Shown piece after piece: positions 25,174-33,439 of a DNA stretch of 41,147 bases; position 1 is the stretch's first letter; each line of letters starts with the position of its first letter. Under the pieces are notes generated by a model. The model searched no databases. It was not told where the DNA came from and was given only the letters and a program-made list of their open reading frames with translations. The position numbers were made by a program, and so were the translations under genes. The stretch spans positions 1-41,147 of the forward strand of contig CAMNFQ010000007.1 in NCBI GenBank assembly GCA_946537295.1, written 5' to 3'. Source of the stretch: an uncultured Bacillota bacterium (GTDB lineage: Bacteria > Bacillota_I > Bacilli_A > Erysipelotrichales > Erysipelotrichaceae).

Positions 25174-25818
25174 TTATTTATTATACATTATCTTGTCTAT
25201 TTCTACTATTTTTTTATATAAGCTCTCTTTATGCGATTTTTCATAGATTTTTTGATAGCGATCCTTAAGATCATTAAGATATTCTAAAAAGATATTATCC
25301 CTGCGTTTTAATAGTACAGGACCATATTCTATTTCAGTTTCAGAATATGGATCGTGGAAATCACTGTTGAACTTAATGACCTGATAGAAAAAGCCATCAT
25401 AGACGATCTGTTCATCAATTATTGTTAGATTATGATCAGAAAGATAAGTTCTGAGTTTATCAACGTCTGTATTGGATTGAACGATAAATGAATCGTATTT
25501 GTTGATATCACAATTATCAAGGATATGTTCAATCGTATAATAGCCCATGCCGGAAATAACAACTGTTTCAACATCATCAGGCGCATTCATCAGACCATCA
25601 GATAATACAGGAATGACTTTGTATTTTAATCTGAATCTTTCAATATTATCTTTAGCGTTATTTAATGGTCCTTTTGCGATCTCACCAGCATAGGCTTTCT
25701 GAGTTATGCCATGCTGTATCAAAAAACAAGGTAGTAAAGCGTGGTCTGAACCCACGTCAAATACTACCTTATTATTATCAATCATTTCTGCTATCGTTTT
25801 TAAACGTTTTGAAAGCAT
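25174..25818 (-). CDS. trmK: tRNA (adenine(22)-N1)-methyltransferase TrmK
   Basis: 214 aa, COG2384. Opening LSKRLKTIAEMI, AdoMet motif VFDVGSDHALLPCFLI, then VVISGMGYYTI and LDNCD..DSFIVQSNTDVDKLR. Methylates A22 in tRNA of Gram-positives. One-base overlap with rpoD (TAATG). The rpoD-trmK order is standard in Firmicutes; the Nif3-family gene that often follows is replaced by glgP. Confidence 0.93.
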   Translation of the reverse strand: MLSKRLKTIAEMIDNNKVVFDVGSDHALLPCFLIQHGITQKAYAGEIAKGPLNNAKDNIERFRLKYKVIPVLSDGLMNAPDDVETVVISGMGYYTIEHILDNCDINKYDSFIVQSNTDVDKLRTYLSDHNLTIIDEQIVYDGFFYQVIKFNSDFHDPYSETEIEYGPVLLKRRDNIFLEYLNDLKDRYQKIYEKSHKESLYKKIVEIDKIMYNK

Positions 25819-27653
25819 TATTTCTTGTCTTCCAAGAATTCTCTTAATCTCTTACTCTTGGTTGGATTCTTGAGTTTTCTTAAAGCCTTAGCTTCGATCT
25901 GTCTGATACGTTCACGAGTGACATCAAACTCCTTACCAACTTCTTCCAGAGTTCGCGTACGACCATCTTCCAGACCAAATCTTAATCTGATAACTTTTTC
26001 TTCTCTATCAGTAAGAGTTGATAGAATCAGATCGATTTCATCTTTAAGAAGTTCATTATTAGCATACTGATCAGGAGACATTGCGTCCTTATCTTCAATG
26101 AAGTCACCAAGATGAGAATCATCTTCTTCACCGATAGGTGTTTCCAAGGAAACTGGATCAAGGGCGATCTTCTGGATCTCTCTGACTTTATCAGCCGTCA
26201 TACCTGAACCCATTCTGTTTGCGATCTCTTCCGCAGAAGGATCTCTACCAAGTTCCTGAACCAGCTGACGCTGAATTCTGGTCATCTTGTTTATTGTTTC
26301 GACCATATGAACAGGAATTCTGATCGTTCTTGCCTGGTCGGCAATAGCTCTAGTTATGGCCTGTCTGATCCACCATGTTGCATAAGTTGAAAATTTAAAT
26401 CCCTTAGTGTAATCAAATTTATCAACAGCTTTGATTAAACCCATATTACCTTCCTGGATCAGATCAAGGAATAACATTCCTCTGCCAGTATATTTCTTAG
26501 CAATCGCAACAACAAGTCTCAGGTTAGCACTTATCAGTTCATTCTTGGCTTCAATACCGTCCTGAACAGCTTTAGTGTCTTTAGGATGCTTAAGACCTTT
26601 TTCGATTCTTTTGGCGATTACAACTTCCTCATCTGCTTTTAGCAGAGGAACTCTACCTATCTCTTTAAGATACATTTTGACAGGATCATTAACCTTGGTA
26701 TAGGTTGAAGCCTGTTCATAGTTGATGACGATATTCTTTTCAGAATCGTCATCATCAGAATCTTCTGATTCTTCTGAAGCCAGATAATCATCATCTTCCA
26801 GATCTTCTTCGTTATCTGATTCATCAATCAGATCAATATTGACATTAGAAAGCCAATCATAGAACTGATCAATCTCATCATCGCTCATTTCAAATCTGTC
26901 TAATGCATTAACAACATCAGACTGAACGATATCAACACCCTGTTTATTGAGTTCAACCAGATCATTTTTAAGATCTTCGATATCGTTATATTTTTTCTTA
27001 AGGCCTAAAGAAGATTTCTTATTCTTTTTAACAGCTTTGATTGCCTTACCATCAGAACCAATGATCTCTTTGATCATTTCATTCTTAGAAGCTTTTGTTT
27101 CTTTTTTCTCAGTTACTTTAGAACTGCTCTTTGCTTCTTTAGGATTCTTAACAGGTTCTGGTTGAGGCTTGACTACCTTTTTGATTGGTTTAGTCGAGAT
27201 CACAATCTGTTTTTTAGCCTTTTCCGGTTTCTTATCGACTTTCTTCTCGGTTTTCTTTTCTATTTTCTTTTCAACTTTTTTGACTTTATTATCAGCTTTA
27301 GCCTTTGTTACAGTGGCTTTAGCTTTTTTATCAGTCTTTTTTTCCGTCTTGAGAGTTTTCTTGCTGGTCTTATCAGCTTTCTTTGGAAGAGCAGCTTTCT
27401 TGGCTACCGGTTTAGAAACGACAGGTTTAGTTTTCTTTGTAACAGTCTTCTTGACAGCTTTAAGAGCCTTCTTTGGCTTTTCAGCAACTTTAGCACTTGT
27501 CTTTTTAACAACTGCTTTCTTTTCAACTTTCTTATCTGTTTTCTTCGCAACAGTCTTCTTGACAGTTGTCTTCTTGTTTGCCTGTAATGTCTTTTTTTCT
27601 TTTACAGGTTTTACCGTTTTTTTATCATTACTTTTCTTTACTTGTTTAGCCAT
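25818..27653 (-). CDS. rpoD: Primary sigma factor RpoD/SigA with a long Lys-rich N-terminal tail
   Basis: 611 aa, far longer than the ~370 aa of Bacillus SigA. Residues ~1-220 are a low-complexity Lys/Ala/Thr/Val tract (I count about 61 Lys in the first 150) resembling histone H1-like tails. A region-1.1-like helical part follows ([20 protein letters not shown], ~224-275), then a very acidic stretch (~278-305) and a normal sigma core: 1.2 [16 protein letters not shown], 2.x [38 protein letters not shown], 4.2 [17 protein letters not shown]. The start is supported by a GGGAGG SD inside the dnaG end. It overlaps dnaG by 8 bases. The basic tail could bind DNA or RNA; that is inference. Confidence 0.95.
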
Positions 27654-29382
27654 TATTGCCTCCCAATTCTCTAATCAGTTTTTCGTATTCTCTCAGATAT
27701 TCGATTGCTTTTGCAGGATCCACGGTAGATATTGCGTCAATCTTATTCTTCAGATCAGCCATTTTTCTTTTCTTGATCTCAATCTTGACTTTATCTATCG
27801 CACCATCAAGGCTTTCTTCATCAAAATCACTTGGCAGGGTTTCAACCAGAGCCAGATTGGAGATCAGATCTTTGATATTATCGTCAGTTGTCTCATCATA
27901 GATTCGTGATAAAGAACATTTTTCATTTTTACGATAGTCATCAACAATCAGCATCGCCAGTTTCTGGTTATTGTCATCCAGCATACAGCCAAGCTTTCTC
28001 TGATAGATATCCAATGCTTTTCTTGACAAGGAAATCTGAGCTAATATAAGATACTCTGCTTTGGTCAATCCGTCAATAGAAAAGCTGATATCCGCTACCT
28101 TTCTATTATACTCTACTTTTCTGTTATCCTGAGCTACTCTTTTCCTTATTTTAGTTAATTCATAAAGCTCATTTAGATAATTATCACGATCATATTCATC
28201 TTTGATCTTTTCGATCAGATTACTTAAGACGATCGTCATCGTTTTGCGATCATTATAGTTATCAAGATTGTACATCTTCTTGTAGTAGCCAAACGCAAAA
28301 TCAATGAAGGAAATCTGCTTTGCTTCAAGATCTCTTAAAGCATTCTTGCCATACTGATTGATGATCTCATCCGGATCCAACTCAGTCTGATTATCAATGA
28401 CAAGTACTTCTGCTCCAGCTTCTAAAAGCATCTCACCAAGTTTCATATTGGCATTCTGACCGGCTTTATCGCCATCATATGACAAAACAATCTTTTTATT
28501 TAGCGAAAGTAATAGTTCAAGCTGTTTTCTGGTGCAGGCAGTACCAAGGGTTGCGACTACATTGGTCTTACCAGCCCGATAATAGGCAATGACATCCATT
28601 ACGCCTTCACATACGATAATATAACCGGCTTTTCTGGCTGATTCATAGGCACGATGATAATTATAGAGATTATCACCTTTTGTATATATGACGTTATCAT
28701 TTGAATTTATATATTTTGAATCAGAAATACCTTTATAATCTCTGGCAGTAAAGGCAATAGGATTGCCATCACGATCATGAATCGGAAATACAATCCTGTT
28801 ATAGAAGACATCAGCCATTCCATTTGAAAGCATACGACAGACACCGGTCTTTATCATATCTTCATCTTTAAAGCCATGATTCTTCAGATATTCATAGATC
28901 TTGTTGTTTTCCGGATTTAAACCGATATTGAAGTATTCAACGACATCTTTATCCAGACCTCTTTTATTAAGATAATTCAAAGCTTCTTCACCAGCTTTAG
29001 ATGCACTAAGCAAATATGATGTATAAGCGATCATCGCACTTAACAGATCATAATATGGTTGAAATTTAGATACTTTCTTTGGAGCTGTATCAATTTCAAT
29101 TGGTTTACCAATGATCTTGGCAACTTCACCAACAGCTTCTGGAAAAGAAATCTTTTTAAAATTGGAAACAAAAGTAAATACATTACCGCCATTTCCACAG
29201 ACAAAGCATTTATAGATCTGTTTATCTTGGGAAATAGAAAGTGAAGGATCATGATCATCATGAAAAGGACAAACAGCCGAATAGCTTTTGCCCTTTTTCT
29301 GAAGTGGAAGATAGTGACCGATAACATCTACAATATCGGCACTGTTCCTTATATCATTAATTACTTCCTCAGTAAGTTTCAT
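27646..29382 (-). CDS. dnaG: DNA primase DnaG
   Basis: 578 aa. CHC2 zinc finger C38-x2-H41...C59-x2-C62 ([11 protein letters not shown]...[10 protein letters not shown]), catalytic TOPRIM with [15 protein letters not shown] and [12 protein letters not shown], then the helicase-interacting C-terminal part. Synthesises RNA primers at the replication fork. glyS-dnaG junction overlaps by one base (TAATG). The dnaG-rpoD pairing is the classic macromolecular-synthesis operon, here headed by a flavoprotein and glyS and not by rpsU. Confidence 0.96.
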
Positions 29383-30758
29383 TAAAACTTGATTCTGTCT
29401 TTAATGTAATCCTTAAGATCAGTGATCTTTACACGTTCCTGATTCATACTGTCTCTTTCTCTGACAGTAACGCAACCATCATTTTCGGTATCAAAATCAT
29501 ATGTGATACAGAAAGGTGTTCCGATGGCATCATTTCTTCTGTAACGCTTACCAATTGTACCTGTTGCATCGTATTCGCAATGGAATTCCTGTGAAAGGTC
29601 TTCAAATAGTTTTGTAGCAGGTTCAGCAAGCTTCTTGACTAAAGGACAGACACACACTGTAACCGGAGCGATTGCAGGATGGAAATGCATAACGACTCTT
29701 TCATCGTTTTCACCAACCATTTCCTTATCATAGGCATCACAACAGATCATCAGGAATAATCTTTCAACGCCAACTGATGGTTCAACACAATAAGGAATAT
29801 ATTTTTCATGAGTTTCAGGATCAAGATAACTTAATTCCTTGCCCGAATACTCAGAATGCTGTTTAAGATCATAATCAGTACGATCGGCAATACCCCATAC
29901 CTCACCCCAATCAGTGAATGGGAAAGCATATTCAATATCACTGGTTCCTTTAGAATAGAAAGCCAGTTCTTCCTGAGCGTGTTCTCTGATTCTTAATTTA
30001 TTCTCATCAATGCCAAGTCTCTTGACAAAGTTATAGCAGTAGTCAACCCAGTATCTGTACCATTCCAGATCAGTTCCCGGCTGACAGAAGAATTCCAGTT
30101 CCATCTGTTCAAATTCTCTGATTCTGAAGATAAAGTTACCTGGGGTAATTTCATTTCTGAAAGATTTGCCAATCTGACCGATACCAAATGGAATCTTCTT
30201 CCTTGAAGTTCTGGCAACATTATTGAAATTGACAAATATTCCCTGTGCAGTTTCCGGACGAAGATAGACAACTGATTTGGCATCTTCCAAAGTTCCGATA
30301 TAAGTCTTGAACATCAGATTGAATGATCTGGCACTGGTAAAATTGTGTTTACCGCAGACAGGACAAACGATATGATTATCTTCGATCATCTTATCCATTT
30401 CTTCTGGAGTTTTACCTTCAGCTGAAAGTCCGGTCGCCTCTTCAATCATATTGTCGGCACGGAAACGTCCTTTACATTCCTTACAATCGACCATGGCATC
30501 CGCAAATCCCTTGATATGACCAGATGCTTCCCAGGTCTTGGTATTCATCAGAATAGCTGAATCAATACCAACGTTATAAGGCGATCTTTCAATAAATTCT
30601 TTCCACCAGAGATCCTTGATATTCTTTTTTAACCATGAACCAAGAATACCAAAATCCCAGGAATTGGAAAGACCACCATAGATCTCAGAACCCTGATAGA
30701 CAAATCCGGAATTCTTGAGATGAGAAACGATTTCATCAAAATTGTATTTATTATCCAT
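29382..30758 (-). CDS. glyS: Glycyl-tRNA synthetase (single-chain, homodimeric type)
   Basis: 458 aa class II synthetase of the alpha2 type, as in other low-GC Gram-positives. Opens with FVYQGSEIYGGLSNSWDFG; Zn-type Cys pairs CKEC and CPVC; motif 2 FRNEITPGNFIFRIREFEQMELEFFC; motif 3 EPSVGVERLFLMI; then an anticodon-binding domain. SD GGAG; 12 bases after the COG2509 gene. No T-box is visible in front of it. Confidence 0.95.
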   Translation of the reverse strand: MDNKYNFDEIVSHLKNSGFVYQGSEIYGGLSNSWDFGILGSWLKKNIKDLWWKEFIERSPYNVGIDSAILMNTKTWEASGHIKGFADAMVDCKECKGRFRADNMIEEATGLSAEGKTPEEMDKMIEDNHIVCPVCGKHNFTSARSFNLMFKTYIGTLEDAKSVVYLRPETAQGIFVNFNNVARTSRKKIPFGIGQIGKSFRNEITPGNFIFRIREFEQMELEFFCQPGTDLEWYRYWVDYCYNFVKRLGIDENKLRIREHAQEELAFYSKGTSDIEYAFPFTDWGEVWGIADRTDYDLKQHSEYSGKELSYLDPETHEKYIPYCVEPSVGVERLFLMICCDAYDKEMVGENDERVVMHFHPAIAPVTVCVCPLVKKLAEPATKLFEDLSQEFHCEYDATGTIGKRYRRNDAIGTPFCITYDFDTENDGCVTVRERDSMNQERVKITDLKDYIKDRIKF

Positions 30759-30770
30759 ATTAACTCCAAT

Positions 30771-32144
30771 CTATAGATTATTACTTATATATCTGGCGAC
30801 ATAGACGCCGCTGGCAGATGCATGTGACAAGGAATGAGTAACACCTGAACAATCTCCGATAACAAACAGATTCTTATGAATTGTTTCGAGATTGTCATCA
30901 AGCTGAAGTTCCATGTTGTAGAATTTTACTTCTACTCCATAAAGAAGTGTTTCATCATTAGCTGTACCAGGTGCGATCTTGTCAAGCGCATAGATCATCT
31001 CGATAATATCATCCAGAATTCTTTTTGGAATGACCAGAGAAAGATCACCAGGTGTAGCTTTTAATGTTGGTGTGATAAACGAATGTTCGATCTTATCAAC
31101 CGTAGAGCGCTTGCCTCTTAACAGATCACCGAATCTTTGAACGATAACGCCACCGCCTAACATATTGGACAGTTTCGCAATTGATTCACCATAGCCGTTT
31201 GAATCCTTAAATGGTTCAGTAAAATGTTTTGATACCAGCAAGGCAAAGTTGGTATTCTCTGTCTTTTTTTCCGGATCTTCATAGCTATGACCATTAACAG
31301 TAATGATTCCATTGGTATTTTCATTAACAACGATACCTTTAGGATTCATACAGAAAGTTCTTACTCTATCCTGATATTTAGATGTACGATAGACGATCTT
31401 ACCTTCATAGAGTTCATCGGTGATATGATTGAAGATCTCACAAGGAAGCTCTACTCTGACACCAATATCGACACGGTTGGAATTAGTTGGAATCTTAAGA
31501 TCAGCACAGACTTTTTCCATCCATTTAGAACCGGATCTACCAGCTGAGATAATGCAATACTTGGAGACAAACGTTTCATTTTTAGTCTCAAGTTCATATT
31601 CATCATTATTCTTATGAACACTTATTACTTCGGTATTGAAATAGAAATCTATCTTTTCAACCAGATAGTTATATAGATTGCTCAATACCTCATAGTTGAT
31701 ATCAGTTCCTAAATGTCTAACCTTGGCATCCAGAAGATGTAAGCCATTCTTGATACATTCAGTCTTGATAGACGAAGAAGCGGTTGAATACAGTTTAGTT
31801 TTTCCACCGCCATATTCTACATTGATCGTATCGACATAATTCATCAGATCTAACGCCTGTTTTTTACCGATATGTTCATATAATGTTCCACCAAAATCAT
31901 TGGTGATGTTATATTTTCCATCAGAAAAAGCACCTGCTCCACCAAATCCATTCATGATAGCGCAAGTCTGACAGTTGATACATTTGGTGATCTTCTCACC
32001 ATCGATTGGACATTTTCTTTTTTCCAGCTTATTGCCATATTCAATAATAGCAACTTTAAGCTGAGGAGCCTTTTTTGTCAGTTCATAGGCCGTAAAGATA
32101 CCGCCTGGGCCAGCTCCTACAATTGTGACATCATACTTTATCAT
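30771..32144 (-). CDS. COG2509-type FAD-dependent dehydrogenase with Cys cluster (paralog B)
   Basis: 457 aa. N-terminal FAD motif TIVGAGPGGIFTAYEL, then KCPIDGEKITKCINCQTCAIMNGFGGAGAFSDGKYN, a CX9CX2CX2C cluster that could bind Fe-S or Zn, and a C-terminal FAD closure VIGDCSGVTHSLSHASASG. Same family as paralog A but without the ~80-residue N-terminal extension. Substrate unknown. Heads the glyS-dnaG-rpoD-trmK-glgP run, with an AAGGTAGG SD. Confidence 0.85.
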   Translation of the reverse strand: MIKYDVTIVGAGPGGIFTAYELTKKAPQLKVAIIEYGNKLEKRKCPIDGEKITKCINCQTCAIMNGFGGAGAFSDGKYNITNDFGGTLYEHIGKKQALDLMNYVDTINVEYGGGKTKLYSTASSSIKTECIKNGLHLLDAKVRHLGTDINYEVLSNLYNYLVEKIDFYFNTEVISVHKNNDEYELETKNETFVSKYCIISAGRSGSKWMEKVCADLKIPTNSNRVDIGVRVELPCEIFNHITDELYEGKIVYRTSKYQDRVRTFCMNPKGIVVNENTNGIITVNGHSYEDPEKKTENTNFALLVSKHFTEPFKDSNGYGESIAKLSNMLGGGVIVQRFGDLLRGKRSTVDKIEHSFITPTLKATPGDLSLVIPKRILDDIIEMIYALDKIAPGTANDETLLYGVEVKFYNMELQLDDNLETIHKNLFVIGDCSGVTHSLSHASASGVYVARYISNNL

Positions 32145-32168: not shown

Positions 32169-32174
32169 ATTATA
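32169..32174 (-). promoter_or_regulatory. -10 of the COG2509-B / glyS-dnaG-rpoD unit
   Basis: TATAAT on minus, predicted start ~32162, 18-nt leader with SD. No good -35; the position expected for it falls in the phased repeats. Confidence 0.5.
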
Positions 32175-32188
32175 TATTAAAGATGGAA

Positions 32189-32216
32189 CTAAAAAGTACT
32201 AAAAAGACCTAAAAAG
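32189..32216 (+). repeat. Three CTAAAAAG repeats at exact 10-bp spacing between divergent promoters
   Basis: CTAAAAAG at 32189-32196, 32199-32206 and 32209-32216. They fill the place of the -35 of the CofE-like promoter (TATAAT 32222-32227) and lie about 15 bases from the opposing -10. Helically phased direct repeats just upstream of a -10 fit an activator or OmpR-type operator. Confidence 0.6.
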
Positions 32217-32221
32217 TGTTT

Positions 32222-32227
32222 TATAAT
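32222..32227 (+). promoter_or_regulatory. -10 element of the CofE-like gene
   Basis: TATAAT, predicted start ~32234, 15-nt leader containing TTGGAGG. No -35 match; the repeats occupy that site. Confidence 0.5.
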
Positions 32228-32248: not shown

Positions 32249-33439
32249 ATGTCACGTTTAACAGGAACAGTGTCTAGAGGCATCAGATGCCCGATCATTA
32301 AAGAAGGTGATGATCTTTCAGCTATAGTTACATCTGCTGTGATCAACGCCAGTAAGTCAGATGGATTTGAATTACACGATAGAGATGTAATTGCGCTAAC
32401 TGAATCAATCGTAGCCAGATCTCAAGGCAATTATTGTACAGTTGATGATATTGCCTATGATGTCAGAAAGAAACTTGGAGGCAATGATATAGGCGTTATC
32501 TTCCCTATCACTTCCAGAAACAGATTTTCCGTCCTTCTGAGTGGTATTGCCAGAGGAGCCAAGAAGATCTATCTCATGTTCTCATACCCTTCTGATGAAG
32601 TAGGAAATGCCTTCTTAACCTATGATGAACTGGATGAAAAAGCTATTGATCCATTTACAGACGTCTTAAGTGAATCACAGTTCAAGGAACTCTTTGGTGA
32701 TCCGATTCATGAATTTACCGGTGTTAACTATGTTGATTACTATCGTGAACTGATCAATAAAGAAGGTTGTGAATGTGAAATCATTTTCGCCAATCAGGCA
32801 AAAACAATCCTGGAATTCACAAAAAATGTTTTAGCTTGTGATATTCATACCAGATTCAGATCAAAGAGAATTCTGAGAGAACTCGGTGCTAATGTGTGCG
32901 GACTAGATGATATCCTGAATGAATCAATAAATGGTTCCGGATATAATGAAAAATATGGTCTGTTAGGATCTAACAAGGCAACTGATGAAAAAGTAAAGCT
33001 CTTCCCAAGAGATGCTCAATCACTTGTTGACGGTATTCAAAGCAAGATGCAGGAACTTACCGGTAAGCATATGGAAGTTATGATCTATGGCGATGGAGCC
33101 TTCAAAGATCCTCAAGGAAAGATCTGGGAATTGGCTGATCCTGTTGTTTCACCTTTCTATACTGAAGGTTTAAAAGGAACACCAAACGAAGTTAAGATCA
33201 AATACCTTGCTGATAACGATTATAAGGATCTTTCTGGTGAAGAACTTAAAGAAGCTATTAAATCTTCCATTAAACAGAAAGACGCCAATCTGGTCGGTAA
33301 GATGGTCTCAGAAGGAACAACTCCTAGACAGTTAACAGATCTGATCGGATCATTATGTGATCTGACATCCGGTTCAGGTGATAAAGGAACACCAGTTGTA
33401 CTGGTCCAGGGTTATTTCGATAATTATACAAATGACTAA
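32249..33439 (+). CDS. CofE/FbiB-like gamma-glutamyl-ligase-fold protein (F420 ligase family), function unknown here
   Basis: 396 aa. Opens with TGTVSRGIRCPIIKEGDDLSAIVTSAV, then HDRDVIALTESIVARSQGNYCTVDDIA, matching the PF01996 'F420_ligase' opening (cf. the VVxxTxKxVSKAxG region) in its Firmicutes variant. The later EVMIYGDGAFKDPQGKIWELADPVVSPF and a Gly-rich end GSGDKGTPVVLVQGYFDN are also characteristic of that group. True CofE adds glutamates to coenzyme F420-0, but no other F420 gene is seen, so the substrate is probably another carboxylate. Monocistronic, SD TTGGAGG, bidirectional terminator after it. Confidence 0.75.
   Translation: MSRLTGTVSRGIRCPIIKEGDDLSAIVTSAVINASKSDGFELHDRDVIALTESIVARSQGNYCTVDDIAYDVRKKLGGNDIGVIFPITSRNRFSVLLSGIARGAKKIYLMFSYPSDEVGNAFLTYDELDEKAIDPFTDVLSESQFKELFGDPIHEFTGVNYVDYYRELINKEGCECEIIFANQAKTILEFTKNVLACDIHTRFRSKRILRELGANVCGLDDILNESINGSGYNEKYGLLGSNKATDEKVKLFPRDAQSLVDGIQSKMQELTGKHMEVMIYGDGAFKDPQGKIWELADPVVSPFYTEGLKGTPNEVKIKYLADNDYKDLSGEELKEAIKSSIKQKDANLVGKMVSEGTTPRQLTDLIGSLCDLTSGSGDKGTPVVLVQGYFDNYTND

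What the first reader, a model, noticed from the sequence alone, without database searches (positions are those of the whole stretch)
32189..32216. Triple CTAAAAAG repeat, exactly 10-bp phased, in the promoter gap of two divergent units
Repeats on one face of the helix replace the -35 of the CofE-like gene and occupy the expected -35 of the COG2509-B/glyS-dnaG-rpoD unit. One regulator could control both a gene of unknown function and the primary sigma operon.
Basis: partly seen in the sequence, partly recalled or inferred. Interest (0 to 1): 0.6.

Follow-up and report, generated by a model that had tools for sequence, protein, structure and literature searches.

The report
Phased A-tracts between back-to-back promoters
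The three CTAAAAAG repeats are real and unusual for this genome, but they are best read as an extra-regular version of A-rich, helix-phased promoter DNA that related species keep in the same place without the CTAAAAAG sequence, not as the binding site of a dedicated new regulator.

Summary
CTAAAAAG occurs at 32189, 32199 and 32209, exactly 10 bp apart, between a CofE-like gene and the COG2509-glyS-dnaG-rpoD unit. It is not chance: it is the only three-copy 10-bp array in 771 kb of this genome, and the full motif (up to 2 mismatches) is found nowhere else in a 198-genome class sample. A dedicated regulator is not supported. None of the 13 aligned relatives with the same head-to-head arrangement has a CTAAAAAG (up to 1 mismatch), and the genome holds no second site above control level. 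What relatives do keep are both -10 boxes and same-strand A-tracts at helical steps: an A-tract centred at -38 to -43 of the inferred cofE start in 11 of 13 (0 of 400 shuffles), and pairs 9-11 bp apart in 8 of 13. The window's first two repeats sit at those positions; the third is extra. Most likely the repeats are a lineage-specific, very regular UP-element-like phased A-tract array shared by two overlapping divergent sigma-A promoters, comparable to the Mannheimia leukotoxin promoter repeats. Side finding: an AAA-ATPase family carries helix-phased repeat arrays directly upstream of its genes in several phyla; this genome has no detectable member.

The parts
32189..32196 (+). repeat copy 1, CTAAAAAG; A5 centre at -41 of the inferred cofE start and -31 of the inferred COG2509 start
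   Evidence: sequence; coordinates; an A-tract at the matching cofE position (-38 to -43) in 11 of 13 relatives
32199..32206 (+). repeat copy 2, CTAAAAAG; A5 centre at -31 (cofE) and -41 (COG2509); lies in the -35 region of cofE
32209..32216 (+). repeat copy 3, CTAAAAAG; A5 centre at -21 (cofE, within the -35/-10 spacer) and -51 (COG2509); the extra copy compared with the 45-47-bp spacers of relatives
32175..32221 (.). 47-bp spacer between the two -10 boxes; holds the strongest predicted 30-bp bend in the window under one wedge model
32222..32227 (+). -10 box TATAAT of the CofE-like gene
   Evidence: TATAAT (TAAAAT in one) at matching distance in all aligned relatives
32169..32174 (-). -10 box TATAAT (ATTATA on +) of the COG2509-glyS-dnaG-rpoD unit
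   Evidence: exact ATTATA in all aligned relatives except L022
32249..33439 (+). CofE-like gene (PF01996), 396 aa; downstream neighbour is convergent
30771..32144 (-). FAD-dependent protein (COG2509-like), first gene of the divergent unit
   Evidence: conserved next to cofE in relatives
29382..30758 (-). glyS-like class II aminoacyl-tRNA synthetase (glycyl)
27646..29382 (-). dnaG
25818..27653 (-). rpoD-type primary sigma factor (regions 1.1, 1.2, 2, 3, 4)

Best explanation
The triple is a lineage-specific, unusually regular array of three helix-phased A5 tracts in the shared upstream region of two overlapping, back-to-back sigma-A promoters. Both promoters have good -10 boxes and poor -35 elements. 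The A-tracts act in cis as UP-element-like and curved DNA: the C-terminal domain of the RNA polymerase alpha subunit would contact them and compensate for the weak -35. Copy 1 lies at the proximal UP position of cofE (A on its non-template strand, -43 to -39). Copy 3 reads as TTTTT at -53 to -49 of the COG2509 unit, matching the T-tract of the distal UP subsite. Because the polymerase footprints would overlap, the two promoters should compete. Shown by sequence: repeats, geometry, conserved -10 boxes, conserved A-tract phase and position. Inferred: transcription starts, alpha contact, bending in solution, competition, origin by local 10-bp duplication.
For: A-tract (A4 or longer) pairs 9-11 bp apart occur in the spacers of 8 of 13 relatives (shuffles 1.5, 0 of 1000) and 6 of 9 clades, and at no other lag tested. 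An A-tract centre lies at -38 to -43 of cofE in 11 of 13 (7 of 9 clades; 0 of 400 shuffles), and at -28 to -32.5 in 6 of 13 (p 0.02). The window's copies 1 and 2 sit at -41 and -31. This is specific to the locus: 38 TATAAT promoters of the genome (this one among them) show no general pairing (2 against 1.1 expected). The spacer holds the strongest predicted 30-bp bend of the 41-kb window under a Bolshoy-type wedge model and is in the 99.99th percentile under an AA-wedge model. The proximal UP consensus A-tract is at -44 to -41 and the distal T-tract at -53 to -47 (PMC5664571). Repeated proximal subsites strengthened a Bacillus promoter up to 8.2-fold (PMC9655642). A parallel exists in M. haemolytica, where 10-bp ACAAAAAACA tandem repeats above a core promoter are confined to one species (PMC2697988).
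Against: Copy 3 lies inside the cofE -35/-10 spacer, not in a classical UP position. The exact CTAAAAAG flanks need not be so well kept if only A-tracts matter. The two relatives without the proximal tract (L013, L017) still keep TATAAT. Relatedness inflates the counts, and clades were collapsed by eye from a weakly supported tree. Wedge parameters were entered from memory. The -35 weakness is judged by the standard TTGACA consensus.
Confidence: 0.62

Rival explanations
1. One reading: CTAAAAAG is the operator of one sequence-specific regulator that binds one helix face and controls both cofE and the COG2509-glyS-dnaG-rpoD unit.
For: Three identical 8-mers at an exact helical step inside both promoters, unique and above chance.
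Against: CTAAAAAG absent (up to 1 mismatch) from all 13 relatives' spacers analysed; no second paired site in the genome beyond control level; A-tracts rather than the 8-mer are conserved.
Confidence: 0.12
2. A neutral local tandem duplication by slippage in an AT-rich promoter spacer, without functional consequence beyond keeping the spacer length.
For: Units differ at few positions; absent from relatives; spacer length varies (23, 38, 45-47 bp) while both -10 boxes stay; 10-bp tandem A-tract repeats of this kind expand and contract in M. haemolytica.
Against: No other three-copy 10-bp array in 771 kb, so slippage products are rare here; copies fall at the conserved A-tract positions; final spacer length equals that of most relatives.
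Confidence: 0.16
3. An orphan array of the kind that accompanies an AAA-ATPase/winged-helix family: a relic or trans target of such a protein.
For: Two genomes of the genus carry arrays of the same CTAAAAAG core at 10-bp steps directly upstream of such an ATPase; 17 of 25 family upstream regions examined hold phased repeats.
Against: This genome has no detectable family member; the genomes that have ATPase and array (G025, G031) have no array at cofE; no insertion scar, the intergenic length equals that of relatives, and copies 1-2 sit at conserved A-tract positions.
Confidence: 0.07

Closest known systems
Mannheimia haemolytica leukotoxin (lkt) promoter repeats (PMC2697988)
   Same: Two to four tandem 10-bp units (ACAAAAAACA) with A-tracts in helical phase, upstream of a core promoter, confined to one species, not recognisable in the sister species.
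   Different: There the repeats lie upstream of one core promoter; here they fill the shared -20 to -50 region of two divergent promoters, and the unit is CTAAAAAGNN.
UP element (alpha-CTD binding, proximal -46 to -38, distal -57 to -47; PMC5664571)
   Same: Copy 1 at the proximal A-tract position of cofE; copy 3 as a T-tract at the distal position of COG2509; an A-tract at the cofE position in 11 of 13 relatives.
   Different: Array also occupies -35 and core spacer; no match to the full consensus; alpha binding not shown.
Clostridium perfringens phospholipase C promoter bent DNA (Katayama et al. 1999, known here from the reference list of PMC2697988 and from memory; text not held)
   Same: Phased A-tracts next to a sigma-A promoter of a low-GC Gram-positive, predicted curvature.
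   Different: In that case, as I recall it, the tracts lie upstream of -40 of a single promoter; here two promoters share them.
pLS20 Pc/Pr overlapping divergent promoters with statically bent spacer (PMC4207663)
   Same: Overlapping divergent promoters and an A/T-tract bend nearby.
   Different: There a dedicated regulator (RcoLS20) binds separate operators; none is seen here.

Membership tests
UP element | A-tract in the proximal subsite (-46 to -38) of a sigma-A promoter | tested here: met
   window copy 1 centre -41 of cofE; 11 of 13 relatives have a tract at -38 to -43; start sites inferred from the -10 box
UP element | distal subsite A-tract (-57 to -54) plus T-tract (-53 to -47) | tested here: inconclusive
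   COG2509 side has TTTTT at -53 to -49 (copy 3) but no A-tract at -57 to -54; cofE side has none
UP element | alpha-CTD binding and stimulation of transcription | not testable with these tools
   needs footprinting or a reporter
Phased A-tract curved DNA | three or more A/T tracts at about one helical turn | tested here: met
   A5 at 32191, 32201, 32211; strongest predicted 30-bp bend of the window under the Bolshoy-type model
Phased A-tract curved DNA | measured anomalous gel mobility or bend | not testable with these tools
   needs a circular permutation gel
Operator of a dedicated regulator | sequence conserved upstream of orthologues | tested here: not met
   no CTAAAAAG with up to 1 mismatch in 13 relatives' spacers
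Operator of a dedicated regulator | further sites in the genome (not needed for a single-target regulator) | tested here: not met
   paired motif with up to 2 mismatches at control level outside this locus
AAA-ATPase-associated phased repeat array | array directly upstream of the ATPase gene | tested here: not met
   next gene is cofE; genome has no detectable family member

The most novel reading that the evidence does not exclude
The triple is an orphan member of the helix-phased repeat arrays that accompany an uncharacterised AAA-ATPase/winged-helix family: a site where such a protein once assembled, or still does in trans, now controlling the primary sigma operon.
Probability: 0.06. Interest if true: 0.65.

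Novelty: new member of a known kind. Interest (0 to 1): 0.27.

Why it matters
It shows a case where the striking letters (CTAAAAAG) are species-specific while the underlying architecture, A-tracts at fixed helical positions between two back-to-back promoters, is kept across a genus. If it works as proposed, the supply of the primary sigma factor, primase and glycyl-tRNA synthetase is tied, by competition for one stretch of DNA, to a CofE-like gene of unknown role; that can be tested with one two-colour reporter.

Tried and rejected
Regulon search in the own genome, genus and class: no second site in this genome and none in the class sample apart from the window; the genus hits besides the window lie upstream of the ATPase. 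A second TAAAA triple in the window, 27600-27624 (-), lies in the Lys-rich coding start of rpoD and is not a signal. A generic sigma-70 scan found no full promoter at either -10 because the -35 elements are too poor. Genome-wide tendency of promoters to have phased A-tracts: not seen. Descent of the array from an ATPase-associated array: considered and judged unlikely (no family member, no scar, copies at conserved positions). Relatives of the same species: not available (nearest cofE about 85% identical), so repeat-number polymorphism could not be tested. Searches (over-long region; search term; frame) failed and were replaced or dropped; two key papers were not held.

Full report
OBSERVATION. 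The window holds CTAAAAAG at 32189, 32199 and 32209, exactly 10 bp apart. The 8-mer alone is ordinary (4 in the window, 2.67 expected), the array is not: in 771 kb of the same genome it is the only three-copy array at period 10 with at least 70-80% of columns identical, and none appeared in Markov-shuffled sequence. Allowing up to 2 mismatches, the full motif is unique in a sample of 198 genomes of the class; in the genus, allowing up to 3, it recurs only in two genomes, G025 and G031, in another context.

SURROUNDINGS. The repeats lie between a CofE-like gene (32249-33439 +, PF01996) and a tightly packed unit COG2509-like / glyS / dnaG / rpoD on the other strand. Relatives, ruminant-gut Erysipelotrichaceae metagenome assemblies where named, keep the head-to-head arrangement, and where the flank reaches, glyS and the start of dnaG follow. 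In the 14 aligned intergenic regions TATAAT (TAAAAT in one) stands before cofE in all, and ATTATA, the -10 of the other unit, in all but L022. In the window they are 32222-32227 and 32169-32174, leaving 47 bp that hold the array. With 16-18 bp spacing no -35 exceeds 3 of 6 matches on either side. Inferred starts are 32234 (+) and 32162 (-), so polymerases at the two promoters would overlap.

WHAT IS AND IS NOT CONSERVED. No CTAAAAAG, even with one mismatch, occurs in the spacers of 13 relatives (12 aligned loci plus G025). But these spacers carry A-tracts on the same strand at helical steps: A4-or-longer pairs with centres 9-11.5 bp apart in 8 of 13 (shuffle mean 1.5, 0 of 1000) and 6 of 9 clades, while lags of 5-8, 12-15 and 16-19 give none. 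Measured from the inferred cofE start, an A-tract centre lies at -38 to -43 in 11 of 13 (0 of 400 shuffles) and at -28 to -32.5 in 6 of 13 (p 0.02). The window's tracts are at -41, -31 and -21 for cofE and at -31, -41 and -51 for COG2509. Copies 1 and 2 are therefore at positions kept by relatives; three tracts at about -40, -29 and -20 are also seen in L010. The 38 TATAAT promoters found in the sampled genome, this one among them, show no general pairing (2 against 1.1). The clades were collapsed by eye from a FastTree tree with several weakly supported nodes.

STRUCTURE. A Bolshoy-type wedge model (parameters from memory) places the strongest 30-bp bend of the 41-kb window at 32188; an AA-wedge model puts it in the 99.99th percentile. 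Strong predicted curvature of the whole intergenic region is shared by some relatives (L016; L037 in one model) and not by others, so curvature as such is less conserved than the A-tract positions.

MECHANISM. The UP consensus has a proximal A-tract at -44 to -41 and a distal T-tract at -53 to -47 (PMC5664571). Copy 1 gives cofE an A-tract at -43 to -39; copy 3 reads TTTTT at -53 to -49 on the COG2509 side. The best-supported reading is that the tracts help RNA polymerase at two promoters with poor -35 elements, that the extra third copy is a local addition in this lineage, and that the two promoters compete. Alpha contact, bending and competition are inferred. A dedicated regulator cannot be excluded for this species alone, but nothing supports it.

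COMPARISON. The nearest described case is the leukotoxin promoter of M. haemolytica with 10-bp ACAAAAAACA repeats, two to four per promoter, confined to that species, in helical phase (PMC2697988). Helix-phased A-tracts near bacterial promoters are a known theme (PMC9825172). Hence: a new member of a known kind.

SIDE FINDING. The genus search led to arrays of five to eight GTTCTAAAAA-type units at 10-bp steps directly upstream of an AAA-ATPase/winged-helix gene in G025 and G031. Other family members carry arrays with different units: TCCCTAAAAT, GTTGTAAAAA, GAACTGTAAA, AATCTAAAGA, AAATGATAAC, AAGTTATAAC, and on plasmids TTTCACC (Arthrobacter) and TATAAAC-type units (Brevibacterium, Bacillus). 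Of 25 upstream regions, 17 pass a lag test at 8-12 bp (fewer than 5% of shuffles), with pooled peaks at 9-10, 19-20, 28-30 and 37-40 bp. The Pfam matches are generic P-loop ATPase families; a profile finds no close solved relative. This genome lacks the family, so the link to the window is judged convergent, but the association deserves its own study.

Noticed in passing
L040:1400-1480 and L039:1495-1550 (genomes G025, G031); also L127, L128, L133, L134, L135, L201, L202, L208, L213, L219, L247, L248: A family of AAA-ATPase plus winged-helix genes (start MNNPFTxxFG) carries arrays of helix-phased direct repeats directly upstream of the start codon; unit sequence differs between members, spacing stays at 9-11 bp (17 of 25 upstream regions, peaks at multiples of about 9.7-10 bp). 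No description found in the few literature searches made.
   Followed up: partly
L165:1490-1640 (genome G093): A further GGTAAAAA-type array is followed not by an ATPase gene but by a short stretch that, read by eye, resembles only the C-terminal end of this family; possibly an array left after gene loss. A check by alignment failed on frame.
   Followed up: no
L124:1470-1484: The last repeat unit before the ATPase start forms TAAAAT six bases before ATG, which would give a leaderless transcript if used as a -10.
   Followed up: no
L053:1969-2086 (genome G032): The COG2509 gene is missing and glyS stands head-to-head with cofE; the shared promoter region then faces glyS directly.
   Followed up: no
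window 27600-27624, - strand: The only other phased TAAAA triple of the genome lies in the lysine-rich coding start of rpoD and is a codon effect.
   Followed up: yes
L031, L033, L034 upstream of cofE: In more distant relatives cofE follows directly after a gene whose product ends in ...YYYLIGIE, a different neighbourhood that may hint at its role.
   Followed up: no
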